Shown here: piece after piece, positions 5,589-62,442 of the stretch
Layout of the letters: every line of letters begins with the position of its first letter
How positions within the stretch are numbered: position 1 is the first letter of the stretch
Origin: Cordylochernes scorpioides
Taxonomy: Eukaryota > Arthropoda > Arachnida > Pseudoscorpiones > Chernetidae
Direction of reading: 5' to 3'
DNA length: 64,000 nucleotides
NCBI GenBank assembly: GCA_030710605.1
Contig: CP092874.1
Location: 71,762,555-71,826,554 of the forward strand
Made by a program: the position numbers and the translations under genes
The notes under the pieces: model-generated
Told to the model about the DNA's origin: nothing
The model's input: the letters and a program-made list of their open reading frames with translations, nothing else
Database searches by the model: none

Positions 5589-5895
5589 GTAATTTATCCC
5601 TCTTATAGGATCTGCTCACATTCCATTCTTTCAAAAATTCTAAATTATTGAGTGCTACCAACTTGTTCAAAGAAGACAACTAAGGATTTTAAAGATCTCT
5701 TCATCCTCTTTTCTCATCTCAGCTTGGGCCCAACTATGACAGGGTCGATGCAATTTTGCAGGAACTTGGAGAGATGATACTGTTCAAGTGGTTCGATCTC
5801 AAGGTTTTATAAATTTTACAGGGATTTGATGAGGCACAATTTGGATTGTAGATTATAAACACAAGGTAATAAGACCAAATTCAAATAAATAAATA

Positions 5896-5941
5896 GTGTG
5901 TGACGTTTCGGTAACAGCGTTGTTACCATCTTCAGACTTTT
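5896..5941 (-). ncRNA. Hammerhead ribozyme motif, P family left arm
   Basis: Minus strand: CTGAAGA at 5935-5929, stem II of GGTAACA pairing with TGTTACC, GAAA at 5909-5906 and GTC ending at 5902, so cleavage would fall between 5902 and 5901. Stem III can only form in a dimer through the palindrome ACGT (5903-5906). One base (U) before stem II is unpaired relative to the textbook core. All core residues C3-U4-G5-A6-N-G8-A9 and G12-A13-A14 are present. Activity is inferred. Confidence 0.6.
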
Positions 5942-5949
5942 GTACTGAC

Positions 5950-5995
5950 TTTTGACTGAAGATGGTAACAACGCTGTTACCGAAACGTCACACAC
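5950..5995 (+). ncRNA. Hammerhead ribozyme motif, P family right arm
   Basis: Plus strand mirror of the preceding motif: CTGAAGA 5956-5962, the same 7-bp stem II, GAAA 5982-5985, palindromic ACGT 5985-5988 and C17 at 5989, with predicted cleavage at 5989/5990. Stem I is short (TGT-like strand against ACA). The two outward-facing ribozymes in one small element resemble the inverted arrangement in Penelope-like elements. Confidence 0.6.
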
Positions 5996-6170
5996 TATTT
6001 ATTTATTTGGATTTGGTCTTATTACCTTGTGTTTACAGGGATTTCACAAGCCAATTTTTATATTTTTGATCTCACGCCTAAAAAAGTGAAATCAATTAAA
6101 ATTTATATTAGTGAATTATATTGTTATGTAAAACCTAGAAGCCATAATGGAATGTGAAAGAATATCTACA

Positions 6171-14100: not shown

Positions 14101-17100
14101 TTGAGGCTGTTCCTAACATGGAAGCCTTTGCTGCCGACTCTAACATTTGTTTAAACAGACAAGGGTTGCCTCTTCCGTCAAAATAGACGTCAAAACCAGA
14201 TGCCATCTGGCTACTAGTTTGCGGCGATGGTCAATAGATGGCATCTGGTTTTGACATCTATTTTGACAGGAGAGGTGACCCTTGTCTGTTTAGATCAATA
14301 TCCTCCCAGCAAAATTTCAATCTATATTTTAGCCATAGATTTGGCCTAGCCACTTTGCCAGCTAAACACCTCTTTGGCAGATTGTCAAGATTCCATTAGA
14401 TTCCGTGTGGATCTAATGGAATAAAGTCCACCCTAGGCTGACGAGGGCCATTAGCCCAAAACCATGATCTCTAGGTGGACACTTCTCAGTTTGCCAAAGC
14501 TGGTGTTGTGGCTTTGTCACCGACCCGAGGCCGCAAGTTTGCAGCGACGGTTAATAGATGGCATCTGGTTTTGATGTCTATTTTGACGGGAGAGGCGACC
14601 CATGTCTGTTTAGATCAATATCCTCCCAGCAAAATTTCCATCTAACATTTGTAGTTGCACAGGACTACACCAATATAAATATTCTGTCTGTGTAGATCCT
14701 GGAATTCCTCACAGCACCGTCGGATGGACTCCCGCTCCGAGGAGAGACAACAGACTCTGCTGGAGCTCTACCAATCCGGATGTCTTGAGTCTGTAGTAGA
14801 CTACGACAAACTGCTCCAGATGGCCAAGAAAGCCAAGTTGTGGGTACCCTCTTTCTTAATTTCTTTTGTTTTAGTTTGCCTGAAGCCATATAAGAAGTTG
14901 AAAACTCCTTGACATAGTTGTGGCAGTATATTTACAACATAGAAATGTAGTAGGAAATGCTATTTTGTCAATCGCCAATTTTGCCAAATATTTGATTCCA
15001 CATTTCTATATACAGTTAAACCTGTCTATAGCGCTACCTCTTGGGACTCACCAAAATAAGGTGCTTCAGAGAGGGGGTACTATAGATAGGTCACTTTTAA
15101 TGTAAATATTGCATTGTACTACATATTTAAAATCGGGCGCTATTTAGAGGGGGCGCTATAGACAGATTTAACTGTATAATGCGTTGATGGAAGGCTAGTA
15201 AAATGGCTTTATTCTAATTGATGTCACGTTAGTTTTGATCAATACTATTTTGAGCTAAAATTAAACTTTTACAATTTTTTTTTAAATAGCTGTGCTGGCC
15301 AAGCTTAAGATACCTTTAGAACTATTATAATTTTTCCCTAACATCAAATGTTGGAAGAAAATTCTAGTGTGGAGATAATTGAGCCAACAAGAAAGTGTAT
15401 GTATGTTGCAGTTACCAGATGTGTGAGATCCTGTATGAAGTCACTAGAAAGTTTGACCAGATTCTGCTTTGTAACTTGAAAGATGAATCTCGGAGGGTAA
15501 GGATGAAACTCCTCAATGTCCCAATGTTGTTTGCTGATGTTGGACTGACCAGAATCATGCCTTTGGCTTCATCAATCACATCCTATCAAGCTCAGAGTAT
15601 TCAACTGAGGAGAAGTTAGCAGTCAAGACTGTTATGCTCCAAGAAATTTCAGTAAGTTCTTTGTTTACCTATGAGAGATTTTTGTTGGAAGGTGAATTCT
15701 TGAAATTTATAACTAGAGGGAACGGGGTCGGTGGAAGGATGGTCTAAACCGTTGGTTTTCGACCCGCTACGACCCAGGTTCGATTTCCGCATTAGGCACT
15801 TTTTTCTGATTTAAAAAAAATGCTCCAATGGCCCTCTATTCTTGCAAAAGTTCAAACCCACCAGCGAGTGCAAGTAACCAAACGGGGCTCTGGCACATTT
15901 GTAAGTGCAAAGTCGAACTGCTTTTCACATGTGTAGATATGTGGTGCACTCACAGTAAAAGCAGTCGCCTACTTCTACCCACCATGATTATTATGTCCTA
16001 TACCACATGTAATAGGGATAAGCAAAAAAAAAAAATAACTAGAGGAATGACTGTCACTGTTACTGCCGATGGTAGAAACCGTTACTAGCCGAATGACCCG
16101 GGCAACGCCCGTGTTTTACCCGATTGAATGTTTTGATTCAAATACTATTTGTTACAATTATAATTTGGCGCCTTAATTAAATGCATATGTTAGTTAATAA
16201 CTATAGCCTATGTGCTTCATCTGTCTATGTACTGTTGGCTTCCGTAGGCGTCTCTTACTGGGAAAAAGAAAGAGAGGATTCCATTTGGTTATTAACTAAT
16301 ATATGCATTTATTTAAGGAGCGACCCGCTCCAAAACAATAGTTACAAAAACGAAAATGCGAGTGGGGGGGGGGGCAAAGGTGGCGTGATCGTAGCCAACC
16401 AATAGGAGGGCGCCATTCCAAAAAAAAAAAGCAAACCGTGACAGAGGCGACGAAGAATGACGCTCGTAACTATATATAGAATAAATGATTTTGGCATTGC
16501 CAGAGTTTTTCAATGAGTGGATTTCTAGAGGAATGAAGGTCAAGGATATCTGGCATAAAAAAGTGGAAAAATATACCTAGATGTTAAACTGAATGTTAGC
16601 ATTTACACATACTGAAACTAGCAGTGTTAGATGTTTTTTTTAATTGTTAAAGTAGCTAGGTTAGATCAGCCTGAACTCTACTGATGAGGAAACAAATAAT
16701 CAAGGCACAATTTGGATTATAGATAATAAACACAAGGTAATAAGACCAAATCCAAATAAATAAATAGTGTGTGACCTTTCGGTAACAGCGTTGTTACCAT
16801 CTTCAGACAAAAGTACTGAATGAGTAATTTGACCACAGCAGTTTAAACACTTGATAAACAGTAACTATTTAAAACAGGCTGTGGTAAAATTTCTCATTCA
16901 GTACTTTTGTCTGAAGATGGTAACAATGCTGTTACCGAAATGTCGCACACTATTTATTTATTTGGATTTGGTCTTATTACCTTATGTTCAAATACCCTGG
17001 TACTAGTGTGGTCTACTGTGGCAAGCTAATGTTTCAGAAAGATATCTAGATTAATAAAATGATCATATTGAATAATATATTTGTTTGGCAACACTCACTT

Positions 17101-20100
17101 GGGCAAAGCCAGGTCAATGGCTAGTACTTGACAATGTCCTTAGATTATTGAATATATTTTATCTCAGAAAGATTCCTTCGATATTTAGGTCATTCTTTCT
17201 TTTAACACCATAGTGATTACTTCTAGAATTGTCATAGTGAGGTGTATGATGTTTTGAATACAGTGTGATGTATTCCTGGTTGAACTGGTGTCTTTTGTTG
17301 TTGTTTCTTATTCACTTGTGTAAAGATTACACAAATTCCATGAGTTCATGCTCCTCGAGCTGTTTTATGATAAGCAGTGGCCTCTCCCAAAGGTCCTGTT
17401 TAGTGCATCTAATGCAAGCCAAAATGTGTTCTGGAGCTGCAGGTGCCAAGCTACATTTTGGGCAAGTGGGGTAGATTTTGTTATTATTTTCTATCTTCAA
17501 TGGCTTGAGATGGCCTGTTCTAAATCTTGTTAGTGTTGTTTGATAATGTCTATTTCTGCGGTTCAGAGCTCCTCCTGGGTTCACTCCACTGTACCAAAAT
17601 GTGCTTAGGTGGGATCCTCCAGTTCTTGTTTATTTTGGTTGAAACCTGGACCTTTATTTTTAGGAACTAATTCATTTATTAAGAAAAAAGATATTTCCTG
17701 ATCGTGGAACTGAAAGTTGCTGATTGCTTGCGCCATCTATCGGAATTAATATCAACTAATCGTTGATTTTTAATTATTCCAGAATTGGCCAAATACCGTT
17801 TCTTGATTAATTAAGAAAAGCTAACCATGTACGCATTTCGGGCTGTTGGCCCTCCTCAACATGGTGCAAGCTGTACCTCAACAATCAAAAAGGCTGGTCT
17901 TTGGGGCATCCTGAAAAACCATGAAACAGGTATTTAGGCCAGAAGGGCGTGTTCATTTATGTAAGGCCTCTTTAAACCCAATGAAAGGTTTCTTTGTAGA
18001 TGAGCTAGAGAACATGTGTTGTAGGATCTACTGGCTCTGGACTCTCAAGAGCTGGGACAACTCCTTCTGGTCCACTTTGAGGACAACCTCCAGGACCTTG
18101 TCACCAACTCCCAGGTAAGCTGGAACTTCTATCTGATATTTCTTAACAGCCCAACTCCTGGGTTTTTCAATATGTACCCAGCACACAATGCCTACCAAAT
18201 TCTGGTTCGTTCCCAAGGTGACTAATGTGACAATGTCACCCATTTTCCAAATTGCTGCTGCTGTGATAGAGATGCATGGAGACATCTGAGGCTCTTCATT
18301 GGACACGACAACAACACAATGCCTATGTTATCTACATTCAATAACAGACATTTCTTATATGTAACAAGCATACAAGAAAATAAGACCTAATCCAAATAAT
18401 ACAATAGTGTGTGACGTTTCAGTAACAGCATTGTTACCATCATCAGAAAAAGTACAAATTATTATTTTGCCTGATGATGGTAATAAATGCTGTTACCGAA
18501 ACATCACACACTATTAATTTATTTAGGTTAGGTCTTATTTTCTTGTATCTATAATCCAAATTGTGCTTTATGTAACAAGCAGTTAACGCCAGACATTGCA
18601 TTAGCTAGCTCAACTAACAATCCTTTTTTTTTTTTTTGCTTATCCCTAGTACACGTGGTACAAGCCATGATAATCATGGTGGGTAGTTAGCGACTGCTTT
18701 TTACTGTAAGCGCACCACATGTCTACACATGTGAAAGCAGTTCGACTTTGCACTTACAAATGTGCCAGAGCCCCGTTTGGTTTCTTGCACTCGCTGGTGG
18801 GGTTGGACTTTTGCAAGAATCGGGGGGCCATTGGAGCATTTTTTTTTTTTTTTTAAACAGAAAAAAGTGTCCAATGCAGGGATCGAACCCGGGTCGTAGT
18901 GGTCGTAAACCAAACGGTTTAACCAGCCTTCCACCGACCCCCCACTAACAATCCTTCTGTGTGCTACAGCTGCCCCCAGAGAAACTCTACAAACTTCTGA
19001 AGCACCTCTTCCTTGCTAGGTCAGTTCTCTCTCATTTGTATCATTTGATCAAAATAACACAAATATGCTCCCCTGTTCAATTTTATAGCTCAACATTGGA
19101 TTCTAGGTAAGAATCACAAGTTATACAGTTAAATCTGTCTATATCACCTCCTCTAAATAGTGCTTTCCTCTCTATAGCACCTGATTTTAAACATTAAAAT
19201 GTAAACATTTTACATTAAAAGTGACCTGTCTATAGCACCCACTCTCTATAGCACCCTATTTTGGTGAATTCCAAGAGTGGGCGCTATAGACAGGTTTAAC
19301 TACAGAAATCCCTCGTTATCACGAACTCGGATTATACGAACTCTCGGTTTGCGCGAACCGTTTCTTTTCCCCCGTTAAATTTCAATGCTTTCCAAAGAGA
19401 TTTTGCCGGTTAAGACGAAATATTCGGTTATGATGAAATACGAATTAAATTCAGCCCCCAGCAGAACTAATCAATCGGTTAAAACGAATTCTAATATGTT
19501 ATAATATGTAATATAAATAATTAAAATATATTATGTGAATAATAATCTGTGTAAATCGAGCTCTCAGAAGAAAAAGGACTTATTTCTATTTGTTATATCT
19601 TTTTTATAACCGATTAATTGATTGTATTATAAAATAATGCGCTTGAAATAAAAATTATTAAATTCTAAATAATCGAAGTGTGAATTGTTTGAGCTTCCAT
19701 AAAAAAAACTACATAAACATGTCATCTAAACCGCGAAAAAAAGCGCCATTAATCTTGCCTTAAAAAGGAAAATTTTGGACGAAGTTGCACGTGGAGTGTT
19801 ATCTAAGTCGCAAATTGCCGAAATTTTTCAAATTGCGAAATCCACATTATCAACCATTCTAAAAAACAAAGAAAAAATAGATGCGGCTGTTGCCTCAGGG
19901 TCTTCGATCTATTCAAAACGACTTCGAAAAGCATCCCATCAAGATGTGGAAGATGAGCTTTTAAAATGGTTTAAAAAAAGTAGACAAAATAATATTCCTG
20001 TATCCGGCGCGCTTGTCAAAGAAAAGGCTAAAGAAATAAGTGTCTCATTGGGTGTGGAAAAAACAGCTGATTCGTTTTCACTTCCAGAAACAATGCTTGA

Positions 20101-23100
20101 TGAGCCTGAAGAATGGACCAAACTCCTTTCAGCTACAAACCCAGCTGAGACTTTGACTTTCCTGGAGTATTTTGCCCTGGATGAAGGATTGGAAATTTGC
20201 GGTTCACCCGAATTAGAAGAAAGGAAGAAACAGAAGACGATGAGGTGAAAGAAGAGATAATGATGCCTACTAGAGGGGAAGTAATCGCGGCCCTCGAAAC
20301 CCTCCAGAAGCTGTCCAAAACCTCTGCGGATATTGATGTTCATTTTGAAGATGACCAGGATGAAATAAGAAGGGAGTGTCTGAAACAGTGCCCAATCAAA
20401 TACCACCAAAAAACTATAACAGACTTTCTGAAGCCTGCAGAGAAAACCCAGATATAGGATACTATATGCATACTGCATATGCTGCATACACATAAACATT
20501 GTATGTACCAAGTATATTATGTAAGTTGTTTCTTTTGTTGTTCTTTTTTATTTGTTTTTTAAATAAACTTATATTCTCATGTTATTGCCTTACATTGTGA
20601 TTATATTATCCATATTGTCTTTTAAAATAAAATACTTTATGTACATACATATACATAATTGTTGTTCCTTAAAATTATAAAATATTTTCATTAATATTGT
20701 TTTCAAATAAATTTATTCATTATTCCTCAGAAATGTAGTTTTCGTACTCATCAGTAGTACATAAGTACAACCCCCGGATACCACGAATTCAATTCGTCTA
20801 ATACGAATTCGGTATATATTCTTTTAAGACGAAAAGGGTATTTCGTTCTCCCGTTGAGTTCGTCTTAACGAGGATTACTGTATATAAAAAAGTGAAACCA
20901 AATTTGTATTCTTTATCTGATTTTTCTGCATTGCTGCAGATATGTCACACCTATAAAATACTTTTCAAAATATATACAGTAAAACCCCTCTATAGTGAAC
21001 CCCAATAGGACAGAGCTTTTGTTTCACTATAGCCACGGTTTGGCCATTTTTTTTTACTTTCAAAATTTTTAGACCGTATAATTAAAGGACAGCCATACAC
21101 ACTGGAAGAGGCTTCCTCTTAATAGTGGTCACTTTGTTTTAATCCCCTTAATTGACCAATTTCCTTACATTAATACTGAATAATAATAGAAATCATTAGA
21201 TGATAGGTTCTTCTTATCATTAATGTTAAAAGTCATGACATATAGTATGTAAATATCTTTTTTAATGTATGACTAGGAATGTAGATTTCTATTGAATGTA
21301 TAAATTATTATGTAAATTTCCTTTTGAATGTATATAACTTAGCCGTGTTGTTTAAACAAAGAGTTTTTTTAGTAGAGCAGAAGAGCTTTACAGGTGTAGC
21401 CGCTAGTTTTGTCTTCCTTATTTCTTTCTTGCTTGATCACCCGAGGGCAGCCCAAACAATATCAAGACTTTGGGTAAAAGTTTTACTTGTTAAAGGAGGT
21501 TTCTTTAATTTGACCTCTCATACCTTAACATTTGTGGCGTCCCCGGGTGGGCTGCGTGGGCTGGTCAAGCAGAGGAAGTATTGGAGCCTGCCGAGTAGCA
21601 GAGGAAGTATTAGCCTGCCGAGTAGCAGAGGAAGTATTAGCCTGCCGAGTAGCAGAGGAAGTATTAGCCTGCCGAGTAGCAGAGGAAGTATTAGCCTGCC
21701 GAGTAGCAGAGGAAGTATTAGCCTGCCGAGTAGCAGAGGAAGTATTAGCCTGCCGAGTAGCAGAGAAGTATTAGACTGCCGAGTAGCAGAGGAAGTATTA
21801 GCCTGCCGAGTAGCAGAGGAAGTATTGGCCTGCCGAGTAGCAGAGGAAAGTATTACCTTGCCGAGTAGCAGAGGAAGTATTGGAGCCTGCCGAGTAGCAG
21901 AGGAAGTATTAGCCTGCCGAGTAGCAGAGGAAGTATTAGCCTGCCGAGTAGCAGAGGAAGTATTAGAGCCTGCCGAGTAGCAGAGGAAGTATTGGAGCCT
22001 GCCGAGTAGCAGAGGAAGTATTAGAGCCTGCCGAGTAGCAGAGGAAGTATTAGCCTGCCGAGTAGCAGAGGAAGTATTAGCCTGCCGAGTAGCAGAGGAA
22101 GTTTAGCCTGCCGAGTAGCAGAGGAAGTATTAGCCTGCCGAGTAGCAGAGGAAGTATTAGAGCCTGCCGAGTAGCAGAGGAAGTATTAGCCTGCCGAGTA
22201 GCAGAGGAAGTATTAGCCTGCCGAGTAGCAGAGGAAGTATTGGCCTGCCGAGTAGCAGAGGAAGTATTAGAGCCTGCCGAGTAGCAGAGTAAGTATTAGA
22301 GCCTGCCGAGTAGCAGAGGAAGTAGGAGAGCCTGCCGAGTAGCAGAGTGAGAGTGAGAATCTGTGGAGCTCAAGGGAAAAGTGAAGCTCAAGGTTTAAAG
22401 GAGCTCAAAAAGCCCTTTGTTAAAGGTTTAAAGGAGCTCAAAAAAGCCCTTTGTTAAAGGTTTAAAGGAGCTCAAAAAACCCTTTGTTAAAGGTTAAAAG
22501 GAGCTCAAAGGAAAAGTGAAGCTCAAGGTTTAAAGAAGCTCAAAAAGCCCTTTGTTAAAGGTTTAAAGGAGCTCAAAAAGCCCTTTGTTAAAGGTTAAAA
22601 AGGAGCTCAAAGGAAAATGAAGCTCAAGGTTTAAAGGAGCTCAAATAGCCCTTTGTTAAAGGTTAAAGGGAGCTCAAGGGAAAAGTGAAGCTCAAGGTTT
22701 AAAGGAGCTCAAAAAGCCCTTTGTTAAAGGTTAAAGGGAGCTCAAGGGAAAAGTGAAGCTCAAGTAAGGTTAAAGAATTCTAAGAGGTTAAAGGAAAATC
22801 TAAAGAACTCAAGGAAGCTAAGATAAATCTAGGGGGACAAGGCTAAAGGCTACCTACAAGGTGAAAGGATATCTACAAGGTGAAAGGATATCTACAAAGT
22901 GAAAGGATACCTACAAGGTGAAAGGATACCTACAAGGTGAAAGGATAACTACAAGGTGAAAGGCTACCTACAAGGTGAAAGGCTACCTACAAGGTGAAAG
23001 GATACCTACAAGGTGAAAGGCTACCTACAAGGTGAAAGGATACTTACAAGGTGAAAGGATACCTACAAGGTGAAAGGATAACTACAAGGTGAAAAGCTAC

Positions 23101-26100
23101 CTACAAGGTGAAAGGATACCTACAAGGTGAAAGGATAACTACAAGGTGAAAGGATACCTACAAGGTGAAAGGATACCTACAAGGTGAAAGGATACTTACA
23201 AGGTGAAAGGATACCTACAAGGTGAAAGGATAACTACAAGGTGAAATGGAGGAGTTGAGCAAAATAAGAGAGGCTGCCAGAGGTAGATTTGCTGAGCAAG
23301 TCAATGGTTTAAATGCGGAGTTAAAGGATCCTTCCATTGATAGGAGTGGCATATATGCAGCGTATGATAGGTTGGAATCTCTCCATTTGGAGCTGGTGGC
23401 ATTGAATGAACAATGCCAGGGAATTTTATTGGCCCAAGAGGCTATTAGCGATGATGAGATAGATAGGGAATTTGGGGAGTGTGAAACCTATATAATGGAA
23501 AGATTTTATTTAGAGGCTAGAATTTGCGTAATGCGTGAGCAGGATAGGGATGCTCTTTCTACTGATGGTATGAATGGAGTTGAATTTAAAGAAGCAAATA
23601 TAAAGGGAGACAAAGTCTCAAGTGATGAATATATATTAGAAATGGACTTTAATAGGGAAGAGTTGGAGCAAGAGGAAATTGCTAGTGAAAAATGTGAATA
23701 TGCAAATTTAAAGAATAAGGAAGATTCTGAAGCTGAGTCCAAAGGCGATAGAATAGGGGATTCGGAAGCTGAAACCAAGGGTAATGGAGTAAAGGATTCT
23801 GGAACAGCAATTAAAGGTTATGAATCGGTGAACAATTCTAGAGCGGTAGCTGAAGGTGCTGATCAAGTGAAGATTTCAGATGATGAAACTAAATCGATTG
23901 ATGATAATGAGGAAAGAGTTGTCAAAGTTCAAGCATCGAGGAAATTGGTGGAAGCAAGACCAACTGGAGATATGGAATTTAAAATAAAGGATAATTATAA
24001 GGAAACAGAATCCCAAGATTTGAAAATCATAAATAAATCTGATTATGCAGAGAATAAGGACGATAAATACAACGGGGAAAAGATCATGATGGAAATGAAG
24101 CGAAAAATATAGACGCAGACAAGGTACTGATTCAAAGGTGGAAGAAAAGCTAGATGCAGAACAGGGTACTGATTCAAAGGTGGAAGAAAAGCTAGATGCA
24201 GAACAGGGTACTGATTCAAAGGTGGAAGAAAAGCTAGATGCAGGACAGGGTACTGATTCAAAGGTGGAAGAAAAGCTAGATGCAGAACAGGGTACTGATT
24301 CAAAGGTGGAAGAAAAGCTAGATGTAGAACAGGGTACTGATTCAAAGGTGGAAGAAAGGCTAGATGTAGAACAGGGTACTGATTCAAAGGTGGAAGAAAA
24401 GCTAGATGCAGAACAGGGTACTGATTCAAAGGTGGGAGAAAAAATTATTGATCCAAAGGATTGGTTGAATGAGGGGTTCATCGAAGGAGTTAATGAGATC
24501 CACCTGAGGTAAAAGGACACTATTTGCCCCGTCACTTTTTGTTTAAGAGTGGGTCCAAAACGACGCCTATACGGCCAGTATTTGATGACGCTTCCTGTCG
24601 GGGATATAACGGACTTTCCTTGAAACGATATTTAAGGAGGGGACCCATTCTGCTGAGAAGAATCCCGGAAATAGGGATAAAACTTCGGGAAAATAAGTTC
24701 GGAGTTTTGGCCGACATGAGGAGATATTTCCAGGTGATGGCCATCAAGGAAAATGATTGGGACTACCTCCGATTTCTTTGGAAGAAGAAGATGGACGCTT
24801 ATGGGGCAATCTCCGGTGGTGTGTATGGAGAGGGTGCTGCAGTGTGCCGAGGAGAAGATGGTTTTCCTGGATAAGAGCCTGGGCTCCCTGCAACGGTGTC
24901 CCACCTACCAGGATCCCCCATCACGGTGGAACGGATTTTTTCTTTCTTGTTTTACAAAAAAGAAAGGTGGGGTATGTTAAAAGTCATGACATATAGTATG
25001 TAAATATCTTTTTGAATGTATGACTAGGAATTTAGATTTCTATTGAATGTATAAATTATTATGTAAATTTCCTTTTGAATGTATATAACTTAGCCGTGTT
25101 GTTTAAATAAAGAGTTTTTTAGTAGAGCAGAAGAGCTTTACAGGTGTAGCCGCTGGTTTTGTCTTCCTTATTTTCTTTCTTGCTTGATCACCCGAGGCAG
25201 CCCAAACAATATCAAGACTTTGGGTAAAAGTTTTTATATGTTAAAGGAGGTTTCTTTAATTTGACCCTCTTATACCTTAACAATTAACATACATGTACCT
25301 CTATGTCTAATTTAGAAATCAGAACAAATCCTAGGCAAAGTTTTATTAAATATATATTCAAAGATATAAAATGATTTTAAAACATCATTATCACATTAAA
25401 TAATACATTGTTTACTTGGAAAAATGGCTCTAACACCTTGTTGCTTCAAAGCATTCTTCAAGCATTACACCATTCAAATAAAGTTGATGTTTTTCTTCCA
25501 TTTCATTTTCCCACATATTCTTCTAAGTCTAGATTCGTCTTTTTTAAACCTGCCATGCAAAACATTGCTGACTTTAAAATCACCATAGTTAATGGCATAA
25601 AAATAGTTTTGTTTGATCACGGGACCATTTATTTGGATTTTTTTTTTAGCCCTAAAACGTACGATCGCGATCGCGGCAAAAGTTGAGGTTGATTCCTCTT
25701 TGTAACAAATTTTAATAGCTTTATATTTTATCTTTTATAATAGAAAAGTTATATTATCTTATTTTAATATGTTCTTAACATTTAGCCTGTGTTGTTTCAC
25801 TTTGAAAAGTTCTGAAAAATGGCCTTTTTTTTTTAAAGAAATAACGCTTTTGTTTTTAAAATGCCTTTGTTTTCTTCATTTTGGAAGCCATTTGTATTTT
25901 TATATTTCAAATTTAATGGATGAAAATATATTCTATTTAATGAAAAGTATAATGTGTTAAAATTTATACAACATACAGCAAAAAAAAAAGTGCAAAATTT
26001 AAAATAAACAATGCCGCTAAATTTATTGTTTTGAAATCGCGATCCGCGAGCTGAAACATGCTCAAAATTTGGTTGTTTTAATTTTTTTTTAAATTGCAAT

Positions 26101-32100: not shown

Positions 32101-35100
32101 TACCCCTAATACGAACCTATTTTCGGTCCCAAAATAAAATCTATTTAAAATACTATGCTTATAACGAACTTAGAATTGTAATTTAAAAAAAAAAATAATT
32201 AAAACAACAAAATTTTGAGCATGTTTCAGCTCGCGGATCGCGATTTCAAAACAATGAATTTAGCGGCATTGTTTGTTTTGATTTTTGCACTTTATTTTTG
32301 CTGTATGTTGTATAAATTTTAACACATTATACTTTTTATTAAATAGAATATCTTCGCATCCATTTAATTTGAAGAAAAAGCATCTTTTTATGCTTATGCG
32401 TTTAAACCAATTATTAAGAGTTCCTAATCGTTTAATTACTATGAAGTTTGTTGGATACTCTTGCTTCCAACACCAATCTTTGGTGTAGGATTGGAATATG
32501 CTCATAGTAGCATTACATTGCCTGCAGGAGACCGAGTAGACCATGCAGGATTTGTTAAGTGGTGTGCTGGGTTTGGTTATTGGATGTCTGAGAAGGATGG
32601 ATTCTCAAGAGAAGGAGTTATTATCAAAAGATATTATTTTAAGGATTTAATATTGGATGCCCTTGAAAAATGTCCACAAGCAATGAATGTTGTGATTAAC
32701 ATCTAACCCACTTTAATTCAACTTAAACCTCTGATCCCTCACGGTATTAAGTTAAATAAGACTAATATTTTAATGAGCATGATGATAAAATAATGATACA
32801 GTTAAACCTGTCTATAGCGCTCCCTCTTGGGACTCACTAAAATAGGGTGCTATAGACAGGTCACTTTTAATGTAAATCACATCATACTACGTATTTAAAA
32901 TCGCGGGCGCTATAGACAGATTTAACTATAGTTATTCATCTATTATGATAAGTTAATCATCTAACTTTATATATATATATATAACAACCCTTATCTTTTC
33001 ACAGATCTGCCAGGACCATAATGTAATGGATGCAACGGCCTACCTGCTGGAGAAGACTGGAAACATAAAAGGAGCCTTTGACATCTTTCTGCAGGTAGGA
33101 ATTCAACATTTTTCAAAAATCTTTGGGTATGCGAGGCGGAAAGCGACCTTAATACTCTACATGCTATAAAAATTATATTAGTGCGGCACACTCTGTGATA
33201 AATTTGATCTTTATTTTTTTTTAGTTACTTTCCTTGTGAAAGACTCTGGTAACATATTCCATCATTTTATTTGAAAAGAATTTTATGACCATTCAAGAAA
33301 ATAAGACCTAATCCAAACATATTATTGACTGTATTGACTCATCCATTGATGAGCTCTACTCATCCCTAGGAGACACCAAAAGTCTCAAGCTTGACACCCT
33401 GATATGATTAAGTGGAGATAAGAAAGAAGAAGACCTAATCTAAATAATTTAATAGTTTGTGACATTTCGGCAACAGCTTTGTCACCATCATCAGACAAAA
33501 GAATAAATGCTAAAAATGATAAAGGACAATTTGAATTATAGATACAAGAAAATAAGACCTAATCCAAATAATTTAATAGTGTGTGATATTTTTTCTCATT
33601 TATTCTTTTGTTTGATGAGGGTGACAATGTTGTTACCAAAACGTCCCACACTATTATATTATTTGGATTAGGTCGTATTACCTTGTATTATAATCAATAA
33701 TCCAAATTGTGCCATATCAATTTTATGACCATTTCAGTTTCGCTCATGATTGATATTTACTTATTTGCACAAATGGGGATGGATCACTTGATTCAACCTT
33801 ACTTAGGTCGCGAGTTTCAAGTTTTTCTAAAAGTTCCTCTTTTGGAAGATGTAATGTACAAATATTTGATAAAACACAATTTTATAAATATATCCTAGGA
33901 AATTATTTGTTACTCAACTACTTCAAACCATACTTGAACAGTTCCTGAGAAGAAAAAAAAAAAAAAACATTTTCCAGGCACATTAAATCATCCCAGAAAT
34001 TGTAGAATGAGAAGCGATGGAAATTTTAAAACCATTTCTCAGGGTTCAGATTGGGCTTTCCAGTGAAAATAGAAGGTCTTCTGAAGGGTTTAAAGTGGTA
34101 CCATTTCTCAGGGTTCTGATTGTGTTTTCCAGTGAAAATAGAAGGGCTTCTGAAGGGTTGAAAGTGGTACCATTTCTCAGGGTTCTGAGTGTGCTTTCCA
34201 GCGAAAATAGAAAGGCTTCTGAAGGGTTTAAAGTGGTACCATTTCTCAGGGTTCTGATTGTGCTTTCCAGTGAAAATAGAAGGGCTTCTGAAGTGTTGAA
34301 AGTGGTACCATTTCTCAGGGTTCTGATTGAGCTTTCCAGTGAAAATTGAAGGGTTTCTGAAGGGTTGAAAGTGGTACCATTTCTCAGGGTTCTGATGGGA
34401 CTTTCTTATGAAAATAGAATGGCTTCTGAAGGCTTGAAAGTGGTACCATTTCTCAGGGTTCTGATTGTGCTTTCCAGTGAAAATTGAAGGGCTTCTGAAG
34501 GGTTGAAAGTGGTACCATTTCTCAGGGTTCTGATTGTGCTTTCCAGTGAAAATAGAATGGCTTCTGAAGTGTTGAAAGTGGTACGTGCCCTTTTGGTCTC
34601 TGTCTCTTGTTTTTTATCATAGTACAATATTCTTGAGATTCTATTCCCTTGGAGTCTTTGGCTTTTCTAATGGCTTGGGTGGCATTCGGCTTCTCCACCA
34701 GTTGTCACAGTAGTGATGACATCGTTTAATTAAGATAAACAAAATATTTATGTTTTTATATTATTTATCAATAAGACAACATTGGTTATACAATGATGCA
34801 TTAGCATGCCATCTGTTATGAAAATTCGTAACTATTATAGACATGTATGATTCTTTAAAAAATAAAATAATTTCTACTGTCCTTACTGCATTGGAAAAAT
34901 TAGCCCTCCCATTATTTTTTCCAATGCAATAAGGGCAGTAGAAATTATTTTATTTTTAAAAGAACCATACACATCTATAATATCTAAAGAGACAAAGGTC
35001 GCCTCTCCTTTCAAAATAGACGTCAAAACTAGACGCCATCTATTGACCGTCGCCGCAACTAGCGGCCTCTGGTCAGTGACAAAGCCACAACACCAGCTTT

Positions 35101-38100
35101 GGCAACCTGAAAAACGTCCACCTAGAGACCATGGTTTCGGGCTAATTGCCCTCGTCAGTCTAGGGCGGACTTTGCGGCGACGGTCAATAGATGGCGTCTA
35201 GTTTTGACGTCTATTTTGACGGGAGAGGCGACCTTTGTCTCTTTAGATCAATATCCTCCCGGCAAAATTTTCATCTATAATAGTTTTGAAATAGTTATAC
35301 ACCCCCCCTCAATGTACAAGGTAAATAAAACAGAAGTGGGGCCAATTCATTAGCAGGTTAATTTTTTTAATCAATGATAAAAAATCGATATATATATAAA
35401 ATTGAATGTCTGTCTGTCTGTGTGTACTCTATAGATTCAAAAATCATACATCCAATCGCCGTGAAATTTTGGGATATTATTAGGTATATCCCCGGGAAGG
35501 TTTTTGAAAAATAATTTCTTGAATATCTTGAATATCCTTAGAGTTATTTGTAGATTTAACTAAATGATGATGATTATTTATCAAAAGTAAGATTTTCTAC
35601 CTATTAATTGCGCACAAGTCAAAGTTAGTTTTATCATTTATCTACAACATATATATTGGGAGAATAGATAAAATGATGATTTTGTAATGTAGAAAATTAG
35701 GAAAGACAAAATTCAGGATGACACGGCAATTTATTTGAGACAAGAATAATGATACAATTCCAAGGCAAGATACTATTCCTTTAACTTCCAATTACCGAGG
35801 GAACTAATTAATATTGATTTTATTCAACTTATTGAGTATTTTTCAATGGACCGGGAAAAAATTTTCACTAGATAAAATGATGATTTTGTAATGTAGAAAA
35901 TTAGGAAAGACAAAATTCAGGATGACACGGCAATTTATTTGAGACAAGAATAATGATAATTAATATTGATTTTATTCAACTTATCGAGTATTTTTCAAGG
36001 GACCGGGGAAAAAATGTTCACTTTCTCGAGATTCAAATTTACGAGTTTCAAATTATCAAAATAATCTATTATTTCTTTTTATAAGTTTATAGAGAATTGT
36101 TTTAACAAATTTTCGTTAGACAAACCTTTACTCGGGTAAAACCCGGGCGAAGCCGGGTACATCCGCTAGTTATTTAATAAATTATCAATTGACAAATCAA
36201 CTTGAATATATCAAACTTATGTATCTGAACAAACATGTACAATTTAGTATATACATTAGAGTCTCTCATGAGTGACTCATCCCATGAGCAACCATCTCTC
36301 ATGAACAACCACCTTGTAAGGCACGAACGAATTTCCCCAGATTTACTACTATAGCGAATCTCCCATGAGAGTGTAGTATAATCAGGGGACCATTGAAGTT
36401 ACACCAAGTTGTACAGTGTAGTTTACTGTGGTGGTTAGTTACCACAAATCCTTTGTGACCAGGAGTTGCAGGAGTGTATGAAGTCAGTGACAGAAGAACT
36501 CCACCAGGAAGGCCGACTGGATCACAGTCCATCCTGGCAGAGACTTCACTCCCAGCTCTCCCGCACCATTCAACTCTGTCAGCGCCACTCCGGTCAGCTG
36601 GCTGAGGATGACAAGAGGGTATGGCATTCTCTTTGTATGACAGAAGCCTGCTCACGGGGGATTGGTCAATTCCTTGTAAGGGGCGTAACATAAGACTTAA
36701 AATGTAATATAGAAATTTGTTTATTCCTGGCCACTCCGACCATCCAGAAGTCTAAAAATTGCATTGCATTGTTCATTGGACTGAATGAGTGTTAAAAGTT
36801 TCATACAAGTCAAAACAGATATTAAACACAGCCCCATCTATTAACCATCTCCACAAACAGGATGACTAAGGTCAGTGACAAAGCTATGGCACCAACTTGG
36901 TGTTGTTATTGGTTTTTTTTTTGCTTATCCCTAGTACACGTGGTACAAGCCATGATAATCATGGTGGGCAGAAGTAGGCGACTGCTACGACTGTAAGTGC
37001 ACCACATGTCTCTACACATGTGAAAAGCAGTTTGACTTTGCACTTACAAATGTGCCAGAGCCCCATTTGGTTACTTGCACTCGCTGGTGGGGTTGGACTT
37101 TTGCAAGAATCGGGGGCAATTGGAGCATTTTTTTTTTTTTATTAGAAAAAAGTGCTCAATGCGGGAATTGAACCTAGGTCGTAGCAGTCGAAAACCAATG
37201 GTTTAGACCATCCTTCCACCGACTCCCCGTGTTGTTATAGCAAAGTTCAACTGCAGTTTTATATAATAATTTAATTGTGTGTGACGTTTCAGCAACAGCA
37301 TTATCGCCATCATCAGACAAAAGAATAAATCCATGATTGATTTATTTAATTATTTATTATTAATATTAAATAATATTTATTATTGATTGATTGATTTATT
37401 CTTTTGTCTGATGATGGTGAGAATGCTGTTGCCGAAAGTCAAACATTCTTCTTCTTCTTTCTTATCTCCACTCAATCATATTAGGGTATCAAGTTGTGAC
37501 CCTTGATGGTGTCTGTTTGACAACCATCATGACTGGGTGAAGTAGAATGTCTTTGTCATTAAGACTGGGTGCACTACTCAGTGGCAGGCCGACTTAGTTC
37601 CAAAAGAAATGGCCGCCTCTTACATGAGGAATAGACACCAAGTACAGCCGCTCCTAACATTCTATATACAGTTACGAGCGTCATTCCTCATCTCCTAATC
37701 AACAATCAGTCATCAGTTTTCATCTCTGTCACCGTTTGCTTTTTTTTTGGAATGGCACCCTCCTATTGGTTGGCTACGGTCACGCCACCTTTGCCCCCCC
37801 CCCACTCGCCTTTTCGTTTATGTAATTACTAGACGAATGACCCGGGCAATGCCCGGGTTTACCCGATTAAATGTTTTATTCAAACACTATTCGTTACAAT
37901 TATAAATTGGCGCCGTGGATGTCACTCTTGTGAAACGTCCCGCTCCAAACTTTACAGTCAGATTAGTTACGATATAAATCTTCAAATCGAGCGAGCGTCT
38001 ATAAATATTTCGATTTAGATCAAGTATTCTAATTATTAAGCGAACTATTATTAATAAAATTTTGAGAAGATTTCGATTTTAAACGTATTTATAACCTTGA

Positions 38101-41499: not shown

Positions 41500-41768
41500 T
41501 CTAAAGAGACTAGGGTCGCCTCTCCCATCAAAATAGATGTCAAAACCAGATGCCATCTATTGACCATCGCCACAAACTAGTGACCTCGGGGGCAGTGACA
41601 AAGCCACATCTCCAGCTTTGGCAAACTGAAAAGCGTCTACCTAGAGACCATGGTTTCAGGCTAATGGCCCTCAGTGATAGATGGCGTCGGGTTTTGACGT
41701 CTATTTTGATGGGAGAGGTGACCCTTGTCTCTTTAGATCAATATCCTCCTGGCAAAATTTCCATCTAT
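41500..41768. mobile_element. R-family element, ribozyme degraded
   Basis: 269 bp, flanked by 11-bp duplications ATATCCAAGGA (41489-41499 and 41769-41779). Same arms and same tail 'caatatcctcctggcaaaat' as 34983-35271. On the minus strand the palindrome ACCATGGT and GAAA survive (about 41650-41660) but the CTGACGA core and part of stem I are deleted. Confidence 0.8.
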
Positions 41769-45301: not shown

Positions 45302-45512
45302 TAGGCACAATTTGGATTATAGGATATAAACACAAGGTAATCAGACCAAATCCAATAAATAAATAGTGTGTGACGTTTCAGCGTTGTTATCATCTTCAGA
45401 CAAAAAAAAATTCTCATTCAGTACTTTTGTCTGAAGATGGTAACAACGCTGTTACTGAAATGTCACACACTATTTATTTATTTGGATTTGGTCTTATTAC
45501 CTTGTGTTTGCA
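45302..45512. mobile_element. P-family fold-back element
   Basis: Start 'aggcacaatttggattatag', end 'ggtcttattaccttgtg'. The right arm (+, about 45432-45472) keeps CTGAAGA, stem II (last pair weakened) and GAAATGTC. Confidence 0.65.
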
Positions 45513-45899: not shown

Positions 45900-45923
45900 T
45901 AAATGCCCCTAAGCTATACCTTC

Positions 45924-48424
45924 CATAGTAACTGCATGGTGTATTTAAGAGAAAAATAATCCAATAATAGAATCCATAGTAACTGCATGGTGTATTTAAG
46001 AGAAAATAATCCAATAATAGAATCCATAGTAAGTGCATGGTGTATTTAAGAGAAAAATAATCCAATAATAGAATCCATAGTAACTGCATGGTGTATTTAA
46101 GAGAGAAAAATAATCCAATAATAGAATCCATAGTAACTACATGGTGTATTTAAGAGAAAAATAATCCAATAATAGAATCCATAGTAACTGCATGGTGTAT
46201 TCAAGAGAAAAATAATCCAATAATAGAATCTATAGTAACTGCATGGTGTATTTAAAAGAAAAATAATCCAATAATAGAATCCATAGTAACTGCATGGTGT
46301 ATTTAAGAGAAAAATAATTTAATAATAGAATCCATAGTAACTGCATGGTGTATTTAAGAGAAAATAATCCAATAATAGAATCCATAGTAACTGCATGGTG
46401 TATTTAAGAGAGAAAAATAATCCAATAATAGAATCCATAGTAACTGCATGGTGTATTTAAGAGAAAAATAATCCAATAATAGAATCCATAGTAACTGCAT
46501 GGTGTATTTAAGAGAAAAATAATTTAATAATAGAATCCATAGTAACTGGATGGTGTATTTAAGAGAAAAATAATTTAATAATAGAATCCATAGTAACTGC
46601 ATGGTGTATTTAAGAGAAAAATAATCCAATTATAGAATCCATAGTAACTGCATGGTGTATTTAAGAGAAAAATAATCCAATTATAGAATCCATAGTAACT
46701 GCATGGTGTATTCAAGAGAAAAATAATCCAATAATAGAATCCATAGTAACTGCATGGTGTATTTAAGAGAAAAATAATCCAATTATAGAATCCATAGTAA
46801 CTGCATGGTGTATTTAAGAGAAAAATAATCCAATAATAGAATCCATAGTAACTGCATGGTGTATTTAAGAGAAAAATAATTTAATAATAGAATCCATAGT
46901 AACTGCATGGTGTATTTAAGAGAGAAAAATAATCCAAAAATAGAATCCATAGTAACTGCATGGTGTATTCAAGAGAAAAATAATCCAATTATAGAATCCA
47001 TAGTAACTGCATGGTGTATTCAAGAGAAAAATAATCCAATTATAGAATCCATAGTAACTGCATGGTGTATTTAAGAGAAAAATAATCCAATAATAGAATC
47101 CATAGTAACTGCATGGTGTATTTAAGAGAAAAATAATTTAATAATAGAATCCATAGTAACTGCATGGTGTATTTAAGAGAAAAATAATCCAATAATAGAA
47201 TCCATAGTAACTGCATGGTGTATTTAAGAGAAAAATAATCCAATAATAGAATCCATAGTAACTGCATGGTGTATTTAAGAGAAAAATAATCCAATAATAG
47301 AATCCATAGTAACTGCATGGTGTATTTAAGAGAAAAATAATCCAATAATAGAATCCATAGTAACTGCATGGTGTATTTAAGAGAGAAAAATAATCCAATA
47401 ATAGAATCCATAGTAACTGCATGGTGTATTTAAGAGAGAAAAATAATCCAATAATAGAATCCATAGTAACTGCATGGTGTATTTAAGAGAAAAATAATCC
47501 AATAATAGAATCCATAGTAACTGCATGGTGTATTTAAGAGAAAAATAATCAATAATAGAATCCATAGTAACTGCATGGTGTATTTAAGAGAAAAATAATC
47601 CAATAATAAAATCCATAGGAACTGCATGGTGTATTAATGAGAAAAATAATCCAATAATAAAATCCATAGTAACTGCATGGTGTATTTAAGAGAAAAATAA
47701 TCCAATAATAGAATCCATAGTAACTGCATGGTGTATTTAAGAGAGAAAAATAATCCAATAATAAAATCCATAGTAACTGCATGGTGTATTTAAGAGAAAA
47801 ATAATCCAATAATAGAATCCATAGTAACTGCATGGTGTATTTAAGAGAAAAATAATCCAATAATAGAATCCATAGTAACTGCATGGTGTATTAATGAGAA
47901 AAATAATCCAATAATAAAATCCATAGTAACTGCATGGTGTATTTAAGAGAAAAATAATCCAATAATAGAATCCATAGTAACTGCATGGTGTATTAATGAG
48001 AAAAATAATCCAATAATAGAATCCATAGTAACTGCATGGTGTATTTAAGAGAGAAAAATAATCCAATAATAAAATCCATAGTAACTGCATGGTGTATTTA
48101 AGAGAAAAATAATCCAATAATAGAATCCATAGTAACTACATGGTGTATTTAAGAGAAAAATAATCCAATAATAGAATCCATTGTAACTGCATGGTGTATT
48201 AATGAGAAAAATAATCCAATAATAAAATCCATAGTAACTGCATGGTGTATTTAAGAGAAAAATAATTTAATAATAGAATCCATAGTAACTGCATGGTGTA
48301 TTTAAGAGAGAAAAATAATCCAATAATAGAATCCATAGTAACTGCATGGTGTATTTAAGAGAAAAATAATCCAATTATAGAATCCATAGTAACTGCATGG
48401 TGTATTAAGAGAAAAATAATTTAT
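45924..48424. repeat. 51-bp minisatellite, about 49 units
   Basis: Unit 'ccatagtaactgcatggtgt' + 'atttaagagaaaaataatcc' + 'aataatagaat', 51 bp (17 codons). Variants (ttaataatag, ccaattatag, attaatgag and a 2-bp 'ag' insertion making 53 bp) recur in blocks, indicating higher-order duplication. The long minus-strand open frames (YFSLKYTMQLLWILLLD repeats) arise only because 51 is divisible by three. They switch frame at each 53-bp unit. Confidence 0.95.
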
Positions 48425-61610: not shown

Positions 61611-61660
61611 AAGAACTAAATAATCTAATAAAGATACTTCGGCCTGTAAATATTTTTATT

Positions 61661-61708
61661 ACCTCGACGTTTCGACAAAAATCTTTTGTCCTCGTCAGGA
61701 GCAAACAA
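61661..61708 (-). ncRNA. Hammerhead ribozyme motif, S family left arm
   Basis: Minus strand: CTGACGA (61698-61692), stem II GACAAAA/TTTTGTC with a bulged G, GAAA, ACGT palindrome and C17 (GAAACGTC at 61673-61666). Downstream GAGGTAA pairs in part with the upstream TTTGCTC. All core residues present. Confidence 0.75.
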
Positions 61709-61920
61709 AAATTAAAAAATATTGATGCGTTGTTCGTTGACAAAGAATAACTTCCGTGGGTACAAAGGATCTTTAGGACTTTATTTAAGCCAAATCGATA
61801 AAAAAAAAAATTACAGAAGAGTGCAAAAATGAAACAACAATAAAGAAAACAGCAGTTACAAACTCACCAACTGCAGAACGGTGAGGGAAAGCAGGAGCAG
61901 AACAGGAGACAGAGGTTCGT

Positions 61921-61946
61921 AGAACCTTCTAGAATCTTCCAGGAAG
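61921..61946. promoter_or_regulatory. Heat-shock-element array
   Basis: Four alternating GAA/TTC units with 2-bp spacing, GAACCTTCTAGAATCTTC (61922-61939), then a GGAA (61942-61945). This matches the HSF-binding consensus nGAAn/nTTCn repeats. Function inferred. Confidence 0.6.
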
Positions 61947-62053
61947 TACACCGGCGTCGGCGGTAAGCAGCAGTCCGATCTCTTGAGACAGCAGCTTGCT
62001 TGGAGCACACCACGTAGCTTCGTTCTTCGACCTCTCTTCATGAGTTCCTCATC

Positions 62054-62064
62054 CCTATATATAC
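62054..62064 (-). promoter_or_regulatory. TATA-box-like sequence
   Basis: TATATATA with GC-rich flanks ('ccggtatatatagggatg' on the minus strand). About 25-60 bp upstream of CCAAT-like and HSE-like motifs on that strand, which gives a normal promoter spacing. Confidence 0.5.
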
Positions 62065-62071
62065 CGGAGTA

Positions 62072-62218
62072 GATCTTTCCAGAACGGTCATGGTTGGTTA
62101 ACCAATCAGAAAGCCACCAGGCTTGAGCATTGCGCAATCGCTACTGATTGGCCAATCCGTTGTTCACCGATTTTTCTACATTTTTCTAGAACGTTCTAAA
62201 ACATTTTCTTCTGGAATG
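62072..62218 (-). promoter_or_regulatory. HSE and CCAAT-box cluster
   Basis: TTCTAGAACGTTCT (62184-62197, three perfect nGAAn units), TTCTGGAA (62210-62217) and TTCCAGAAC (62075-62083), with GATTGG/CCAAT boxes near 62096-62106 and 62145-62156. All upstream of the minus-strand TATA box. Arrangement is that of a heat-shock promoter; heat response is an inference. Confidence 0.55.
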
Positions 62219-62251
62219 CGCCATTTTTCATTTTACGTAACAATATATATA

Positions 62252-62300
62252 TTTGCTCCTGACGAGTACAAAAGATTTTTGTCGAAACGTCGAGGTAATA
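62252..62300 (+). ncRNA. Hammerhead ribozyme motif, S family right arm
   Basis: CTGACGA (62259-62265), stem II ACAAAA/TTTTGT closed by G-C, GAAA (62284-62287), ACGT palindrome and C17 at 62291, with predicted cleavage 62291/62292. Stem I CTC/GAG, then a 2-nt internal loop and ATT/AAT. Confidence 0.75.
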
Positions 62301-62442
62301 AAAAGATTTACTGGCTGAAGTATCTTTATTTTTAAGAAATATGAATGCCGGCTATCTTTACGATAAATAATCTAAAGTCCGATTTTTTTTACATACGCGA
62401 TTTTTAAAAGTTAACCTTTGTTGCTATTTCTGCATCATACAT

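What the first reader, a model, noticed from the sequence alone, without database searches (positions are those of the whole stretch)
35116..35170. Complete type I hammerhead ribozyme in a small retro-inserted element
Every core position is present (CTGACGA, GAAA, UH cleavage site). Stem II is perfect (GGGC/GCCC), stem I pairs over about 11 bp, and stem III is a loopless palindrome ACCATGGT that would form a double hammerhead in a dimer. The host element is only 289 bp, non-coding and flanked by 11-bp duplications. Hammerheads are known from Penelope-like elements, retrozymes and some satellites; this R family has none of their coding sequence.
Basis: partly seen in the sequence, partly recalled or inferred. 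Interest (0 to 1): 0.85.

Follow-up and report, generated by a model that had tools for sequence, protein, structure and literature searches.

The report
Hammerhead retrozyme with Penelope-type insertion scar
A tiny non-coding mobile element in an animal genome carries an intact-looking self-cutting RNA, and the scar left by its insertion looks like that of Penelope-type retrotransposons, which may be the machinery that moves such elements.

Summary
The hammerhead at 35116-35170 (minus strand) is real: 0 of 200 shuffled windows match at its stem lengths, though Rfam does not report it. In 67 related segments the core is intact in 53. The 289-bp element is a truncated, folded-back insertion of a ~320-nt non-coding unit that also lies in partial tandem at window 14151-14640 and fivefold in L063. 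That is a metazoan retrozyme, a known kind.

The new point is the scar. One end carries a fixed 3' tail; in 60 of 68 tailed copies the other end is an inverted arm of the same unit, starting 21-32 nt inside that tail in 58 of the 60. Autonomous Penelope-like elements (PLEs; RT plus GIY-YIG) of the same genome show the same anatomy: ~32-nt tail, inverted partner, ~10-bp duplication, own hammerheads. One lies in the window. A purified PLE enzyme cuts and extends both strands from two adjacent RNA sites that bound the tail (PMC11167929).

Best reading: a retrozyme moved by PLE machinery, perhaps from circular RNA. There are no RNA data, and no significant sequence is shared with the PLEs examined.

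The parts
35116..35170 (-). type I hammerhead ribozyme, core intact; predicted cut between 35127 and 35126
   Evidence: intact (row WIN_35020)
34983..35173 (-). inverted (antisense) arm of the retrozyme unit, unit positions about 298 to 106; holds the hammerhead
35171..35275 (+). sense arm, unit position about 221 to the 3' tail; 77 nt complementary to the other arm (97%)
35249..35275 (+). one-sided 3' tail (27 nt beyond the end of the inverted arm)
   Evidence: row L048
34972..34982 (.). left copy of the 11-bp flanking duplication
35272..35282 (.). right copy of the 11-bp flanking duplication; its first 4-5 bases may be element sequence
14151..14640 (+). second retrozyme insertion: short inverted arm, partial unit, full 320-bp unit in direct repeat; hammerhead broken (GAAA reads AAAA); flanked by TCTAACATTTGT twice
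41500..41767 (+). third retrozyme insertion, inverted and sense arms, 5' half of the hammerhead lost; flanked by TATATCCAAGGA twice (read by eye)
61627..62363 (.). degraded PLE insertion with hammerhead-bearing inverted arms (cores at 61698 - and 62259 +), a 33-nt tail on the right and TAAATAATCT duplication

Best explanation
The element is one insertion of a metazoan retrozyme, a non-coding retroelement of ~320 nt with one type I hammerhead per unit. Multimeric transcripts cut themselves at the hammerhead and monomers are probably closed into circles (inferred from the family). A Penelope-like RT/GIY-YIG enzyme then cuts both strands of an AT-rich target roughly 10-15 bp apart and starts reverse transcription of the retrozyme RNA at two fixed sites about 30 nt apart, one for each target strand. 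The two cDNAs meet at a variable junction, leaving an inverted arm, a sense arm, a one-sided tail and a target-site duplication. Shown here: hammerhead sequence, 320-nt unit, fixed ends, inverted arms, duplications, and the same anatomy in RT+GIY-YIG elements of this genome. Inferred: cleavage, circularisation, and which enzyme acts.
For: Unit: direct repeat of period 320 in the window and five near-identical full units in L063; no frame over 53 aa in 4-mers of five copies. Scar: 68 of 70 copies end in the tail; 60 of 68 have an inverted arm, 58 of 60 with the offset at 21-32 nt. In the set found with a non-inverted query: 22 of 30 inverted, 20 of 22 at that offset. Inner junctions differ: 22 distinct of 23 in that set. 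TSD-like score >=10 in 30 of 68 against 3.0% of shuffled pairings. PLEs of the same genome: inverted pairs with RVT_1 and GIY-YIG; 40 of 40 best places stop at query 161-176 and six inverted partners at 129-134. Published: a PLE protein cuts and extends both strands and starts at two adjacent sites that bound the tail (PMC11167929, main text read); inverted pLTR, 31-bp tail and 8-10-bp TSDs in rotifer PLEs (PMC3846280, passages).
Against: No RNA or protein data. No significant sequence shared between the unit and the PLE loci compared; the similar stem-loop at the start sites is a single-sequence prediction. The PLE copies found are 97-100% identical to each other while retrozyme copies are 94% on average, so the PLE family seen may not be the partner. 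8 of 68 tailed copies show no inverted arm at the threshold, and L081 and L082 have an outer end elsewhere. Short TSDs in AT-rich flanks are weak: the 95th percentile of the null is a score of 8, equal to the observed median. Copies are the best hits only, set B was found with an inverted query, and a few rows share flanks (L030/L031/L036; L076/L079). Rfam reports no hammerhead.
Confidence: 0.7

Rival explanations
1. Same element and same enzyme, but the template is a linear uncut multimeric transcript and not a circle; the hammerhead is dispensable for insertion.
For: PMC11167929 (main text): hammerhead mutants did not affect insertion by the anole PLE in vitro. Sense parts longer than one unit, 23 of 30, are allowed by either template. 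L072 and L075 have two full units only 93% and 96% alike.
Against: All five full units of L063 are 99-100% alike against a mean of 94% between loci. Non-CpG core positions vary less than the rest (0.7% against 3.0%, nine positions), though stems do not (3.2%).
Confidence: 0.35
2. LINE-type retrotransposition with twin priming made the inverted arms, independent of PLEs.
For: Twin priming also gives an inverted 5' part, a variable inner junction and TSDs (general knowledge). PMC7229834 leaves LINEs open as mobiliser.
Against: Here the outer end of the inverted arm is fixed, 58 of 60 within 12 nt, and the inversion is the rule (60 of 68), whereas LINE second-priming sites vary (general knowledge). 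PLEs of the same genome have the same offset.
Confidence: 0.12
3. A fold-back DNA transposon (MITE): the 77-bp inverted repeat is a terminal inverted repeat moved by a transposase and the hammerhead is a passenger.
For: The element looks like one in isolation: 77-nt arms, 97% complementary.
Against: The two ends differ by the one-sided tail; junctions and arm lengths differ between copies; TSD length varies; full units occur in tandem without inversion of each other (L063, L075).
Confidence: 0.03
4. Not a retrozyme in its own right but the reduced pLTR of a PLE family of this genome whose coding copies were not found.
For: Order hammerhead, then RT start sites, then tail is the order of a PLE pLTR. 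PMC11722881 (passages) proposes that retrozymes arose from reduced PLEs.
Against: No PLE coding match in 43 retrozyme loci tested with three PLE proteins; direct unit-to-unit joints without an ORF (L063, L075).
Confidence: 0.2

Closest known systems
Metazoan non-LTR retrozymes (Cervera & de la Pena 2020, PMC7229834; Results part 1, Discussion and passages read)
   Same: Non-coding units of 170-400 nt, low G+C, type I hammerhead with a very short helix III, tandem units, TSDs longer than 4 bp.
   Different: Most copies here are fold-back insertions with a fixed one-sided tail; the parts of that paper I read do not mention it (its main text has no word beginning with 'inverted'). Expression as circles untested here.
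Penelope-like elements (PMC11167929, main text; PMC3846280, passages)
   Same: Inverted terminal copies, tail of about 30-40 bp on one side, TSD of about 8-15 bp, minimal type I hammerheads, AT-rich targets.
   Different: No RT or GIY-YIG coding sequence; no significant sequence shared with the PLEs of this genome that were compared.
Plant LTR retrozymes (PMC4918200; seen only in search listings and as described in PMC7761336)
   Same: Small, non-coding, hammerhead-bearing, circular RNA intermediates.
   Different: LTRs, PBS, PPT, 4-bp TSDs and type III hammerheads; none of these seen here.

Membership tests
Metazoan retrozyme | Type I hammerhead | tested here: met
   Sequence and stems; activity not testable; Rfam silent.
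Metazoan retrozyme | Non-coding unit of 170-400 nt with G+C under 50% | tested here: met
   Unit 320 nt, G+C 0.46; median of 35 full units 0.47; longest frame 53 aa in 4-mers of five copies.
Metazoan retrozyme | Tandem units | tested here: met
   Period 320 at window 14218-14637; L063 five full units, L075 two. Most copies hold less than three units.
Metazoan retrozyme | Expressed as linear and circular RNA | not testable with these tools
   No RNA data.
Penelope-like element | RT plus GIY-YIG coding sequence | tested here: not met
   No frame in the unit and no PLE protein match in 43 loci.
Penelope-like element | Inverted end, one-sided tail of about 30 nt, TSD | tested here: met
   compared with PLEs of the same genome.
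MITE / DNA transposon | Matching inverted termini and constant inner structure | tested here: not met
   One-sided tail and variable junctions.

The most novel reading that the evidence does not exclude
Animal retrozymes are trans-mobilised by Penelope-like elements, and this is written in their insertion scars: one circular RNA is copied from both cut target strands at two fixed start sites about 30 nt apart. Fold-back mini-elements such as this one are then the normal product and not debris, and the retrozyme imitates the shape of the PLE's priming stem-loop without sharing its sequence.
Probability: 0.5. Interest if true: 0.72.

Novelty: new variant of a known kind. Interest (0 to 1): 0.6.

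Why it matters
The mobiliser of animal retrozymes was left open: PMC7761336 (section 9 read) says that their repeats show no conserved motif from which the autonomous partner could be deduced, and PMC7229834 (Discussion read) calls PLEs a strong candidate on the ground of shared features and co-occurrence. A recurrent two-site scar offers a sequence test that can be run on any genome with retrozymes, and it ties the in vitro PLE data of 2024 (PMC11167929) to natural insertions of a non-coding parasite. It also warns that small fold-back repeats of this kind could be taken for MITEs.

Tried and rejected
MITE reading: dropped after the asymmetric ends and variable junctions. An apparent fixed break at unit position 271 was dropped: the same places read from fetched loci continue into inverted arms, so it probably reflects padding in the search tool. 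An apparent constant total arm length in set B was not claimed, because those copies were selected with an inverted query. Sequence link to a PLE: none with E below 0.07 among L084, L086, L089, L090 and L099-L104. L099 lies in a larger palindrome running past the fetched ends, so its ends say nothing. Rfam as a test of the hammerhead failed. Paper searches for a report of tails or inverted arms in retrozymes: none recognised in the listings shown; only the sections and passages named in this report were read, no supplement, and PMC4209133 and PMC2377424 are not held, so it may be in print elsewhere.

Full report
What is there. The minus strand of 35116-35170 holds a complete type I hammerhead. 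A descriptor with core, stems I and II and a two-pair stem III finds only this site in the window; at stem I >=6 and stem II >=4 it is never matched in 200 shuffles. The minimum-energy fold of the minus strand of the element places stems I and II at the tip of a long hairpin, but also pairs core bases GAC with GUC at the cut site, which is not the active fold. Rfam reports no hammerhead, and only a weak HH9 match in one of four related copies tried, L055. The very short helix III may be the reason; that was not tested. PMC7229834 (passages) describes a helix III of two pairs capped by a tetraloop as similar to invertebrate hammerheads.

The family. The window carries three insertions, at 34983-35275, 14151-14640 and 41500-41767, each with an 11-12-bp duplication (the third read by eye), and a degraded match at 36810-36898. 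At 14218-14637 the same 100-bp 3' region recurs 320 bp apart, which shows the unit length. On the RNA strand the unit is: an upstream part, the hammerhead, about 170 nt, then the 3' tail ending ...AAATTTCCATC(TATA). Two sets were read: set B, the 40 scored places nearest the window element, one of them the element itself; and set A, 30 of the 40 scored places nearest the full sense unit, one of them the window's own. In 67 segments that span the hammerhead region the core is intact in 53, and in 45 of 67 all of stems I, II and III pair as well. Nine non-CpG core positions vary in 0.7% of cells on average, against 3.0% outside core and stems and 3.2% in stems; one core position (G12, in a CpG) varies in 7 of 67. 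The commonest shared variant in the ribozyme, A to G at the base of stem I in 23 of 67, keeps the pair as G-U. This suggests that the ribozyme is kept, but it is not strong alone.

The insertion scar. 68 of 70 copies end in the tail; the two without, L043 and L044, are left out of later counts. In 60 of the 68 the other end is an inverted piece of the same unit (alignment score 18 or more). Comparing each copy's two arms, the outer end of the inverted arm lies 21-32 nt inside the CCATC end in 58 of 60; the exceptions are L059 (39) and L081 (-4). AT-rich flanks can lengthen such matches by chance, which explains part of the spread. In set A, found with a non-inverted query, the numbers are 22 inverted of 30 and 20 of 22 at that offset; L057 and L068 show short inverted pieces below the threshold. 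L076/L079 and L030/L031/L036 share flanks, so a few rows are not independent. The inner junction differs between copies (22 distinct pairs of 23 in set A, 36 of 40 in set B). TSD-like matches score 10 or more in 30 of 68 copies against 3.0% of shuffled flank pairings, but the observed median (8) only equals the 95th percentile of that null. Arms of one copy resemble each other somewhat more than they resemble other copies (94.5% against 92.5%; higher in 37 of 48).

The same scar in Penelope-like elements of this genome. GIY-YIG matches are abundant (146 rows; 150 candidates of 17015 scored). L100 and L102 hold inverted pairs of frames with RVT_1 and GIY-YIG domains. In L100 the arms are identical over 2402 bp, a hammerhead lies near each outer end, and the right side runs about 32 nt further than the left before a 10-bp repeat, GATTCAGGTA (read from the ends printed). 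A genome search with that end region gave 40 best places that stop at query 161-176 (the query's own place at 176) and six inverted partners that stop at 129-134. In the window, 61627-62363 is a fragment of this kind with a 33-nt tail. Another family, 17 of the 25 rows of a loose core scan, forms close inverted pairs too: of five such pairs tested, four have long arms and one of these an exact 13-bp repeat behind a ~20-nt tail. PMC11167929 (main text read) shows that a purified PLE protein cuts and extends both strands, starts at two adjacent internal RNA sites, and that the tail is the stretch between them; its hammerhead was not needed for insertion in vitro. PMC3846280 (passages) describes an inverted pLTR, a 31-bp tail and TSDs of 8-10 bp in rotifer PLEs. 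The retrozyme and the PLEs compared share no significant sequence. In predicted folds of both, the second start site lies inside a stem-loop and the tail runs through its 3' strand; this is a resemblance and was not tested by covariation.

Template. L063 holds five full units, four in one direction and one in the other, 99-100% identical, against a mean of 94% between loci. Copying round one circle explains this simply; a very young tandem source would too. L072 and L075 do not show it (93% and 96%).

Judgement. The hammerhead and the retrozyme class are known kinds. The PLE-type scar is the part that I did not find described for retrozymes in the searches made or in the sections and passages read; it makes the open question of the mobiliser testable. 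Confidence is limited by the lack of RNA data, by the lack of shared sequence with the PLEs examined, and by the use of best hits only. On recounting for this report I lowered the probability of the boldest reading from 0.55 to 0.5, because the circular template rests mainly on one locus.

Noticed in passing
window 5856-6035, 16729-16988, 18370-18548, 45328-45509 and other places: A repeat with a hammerhead-like core CTGA(A/T)GATGGTAACA...GTTACCGAAACGTC with an extra base between core and stem II, 17 of 25 rows of a loose scan, often in close inverted pairs with a one-sided tail CTATAATCCAAATTGTGC: probably another PLE-type family.
   Followed up: partly
L060 2128-3317 (+): Tandem array of 11 U6 snRNA matches, 108-bp period for most, beside a retrozyme copy.
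   Followed up: no
L100 875-929 (-): Twister-P1-like match, 49 bits, E 2.5e-8, below the gathering score of 67.2, in the flank of a PLE.
   Followed up: no
L099 251-2734 (-); also L084, L089: Long frames with GIY-YIG near the N-terminus (residues 34-114 of 828 in L099), reminiscent of PLEs with permuted domains (recalled, not tested).
   Followed up: no
window 45922-48420; 21568-24442: A 51-bp satellite of about 49 copies, and arrays of 27-, 19- and 42-bp units.
   Followed up: no
window 34833-34982: A separate fold-back repeat (70-nt arms, 90% complementary, 10-nt spacer) that abuts the retrozyme insertion.
   Followed up: no
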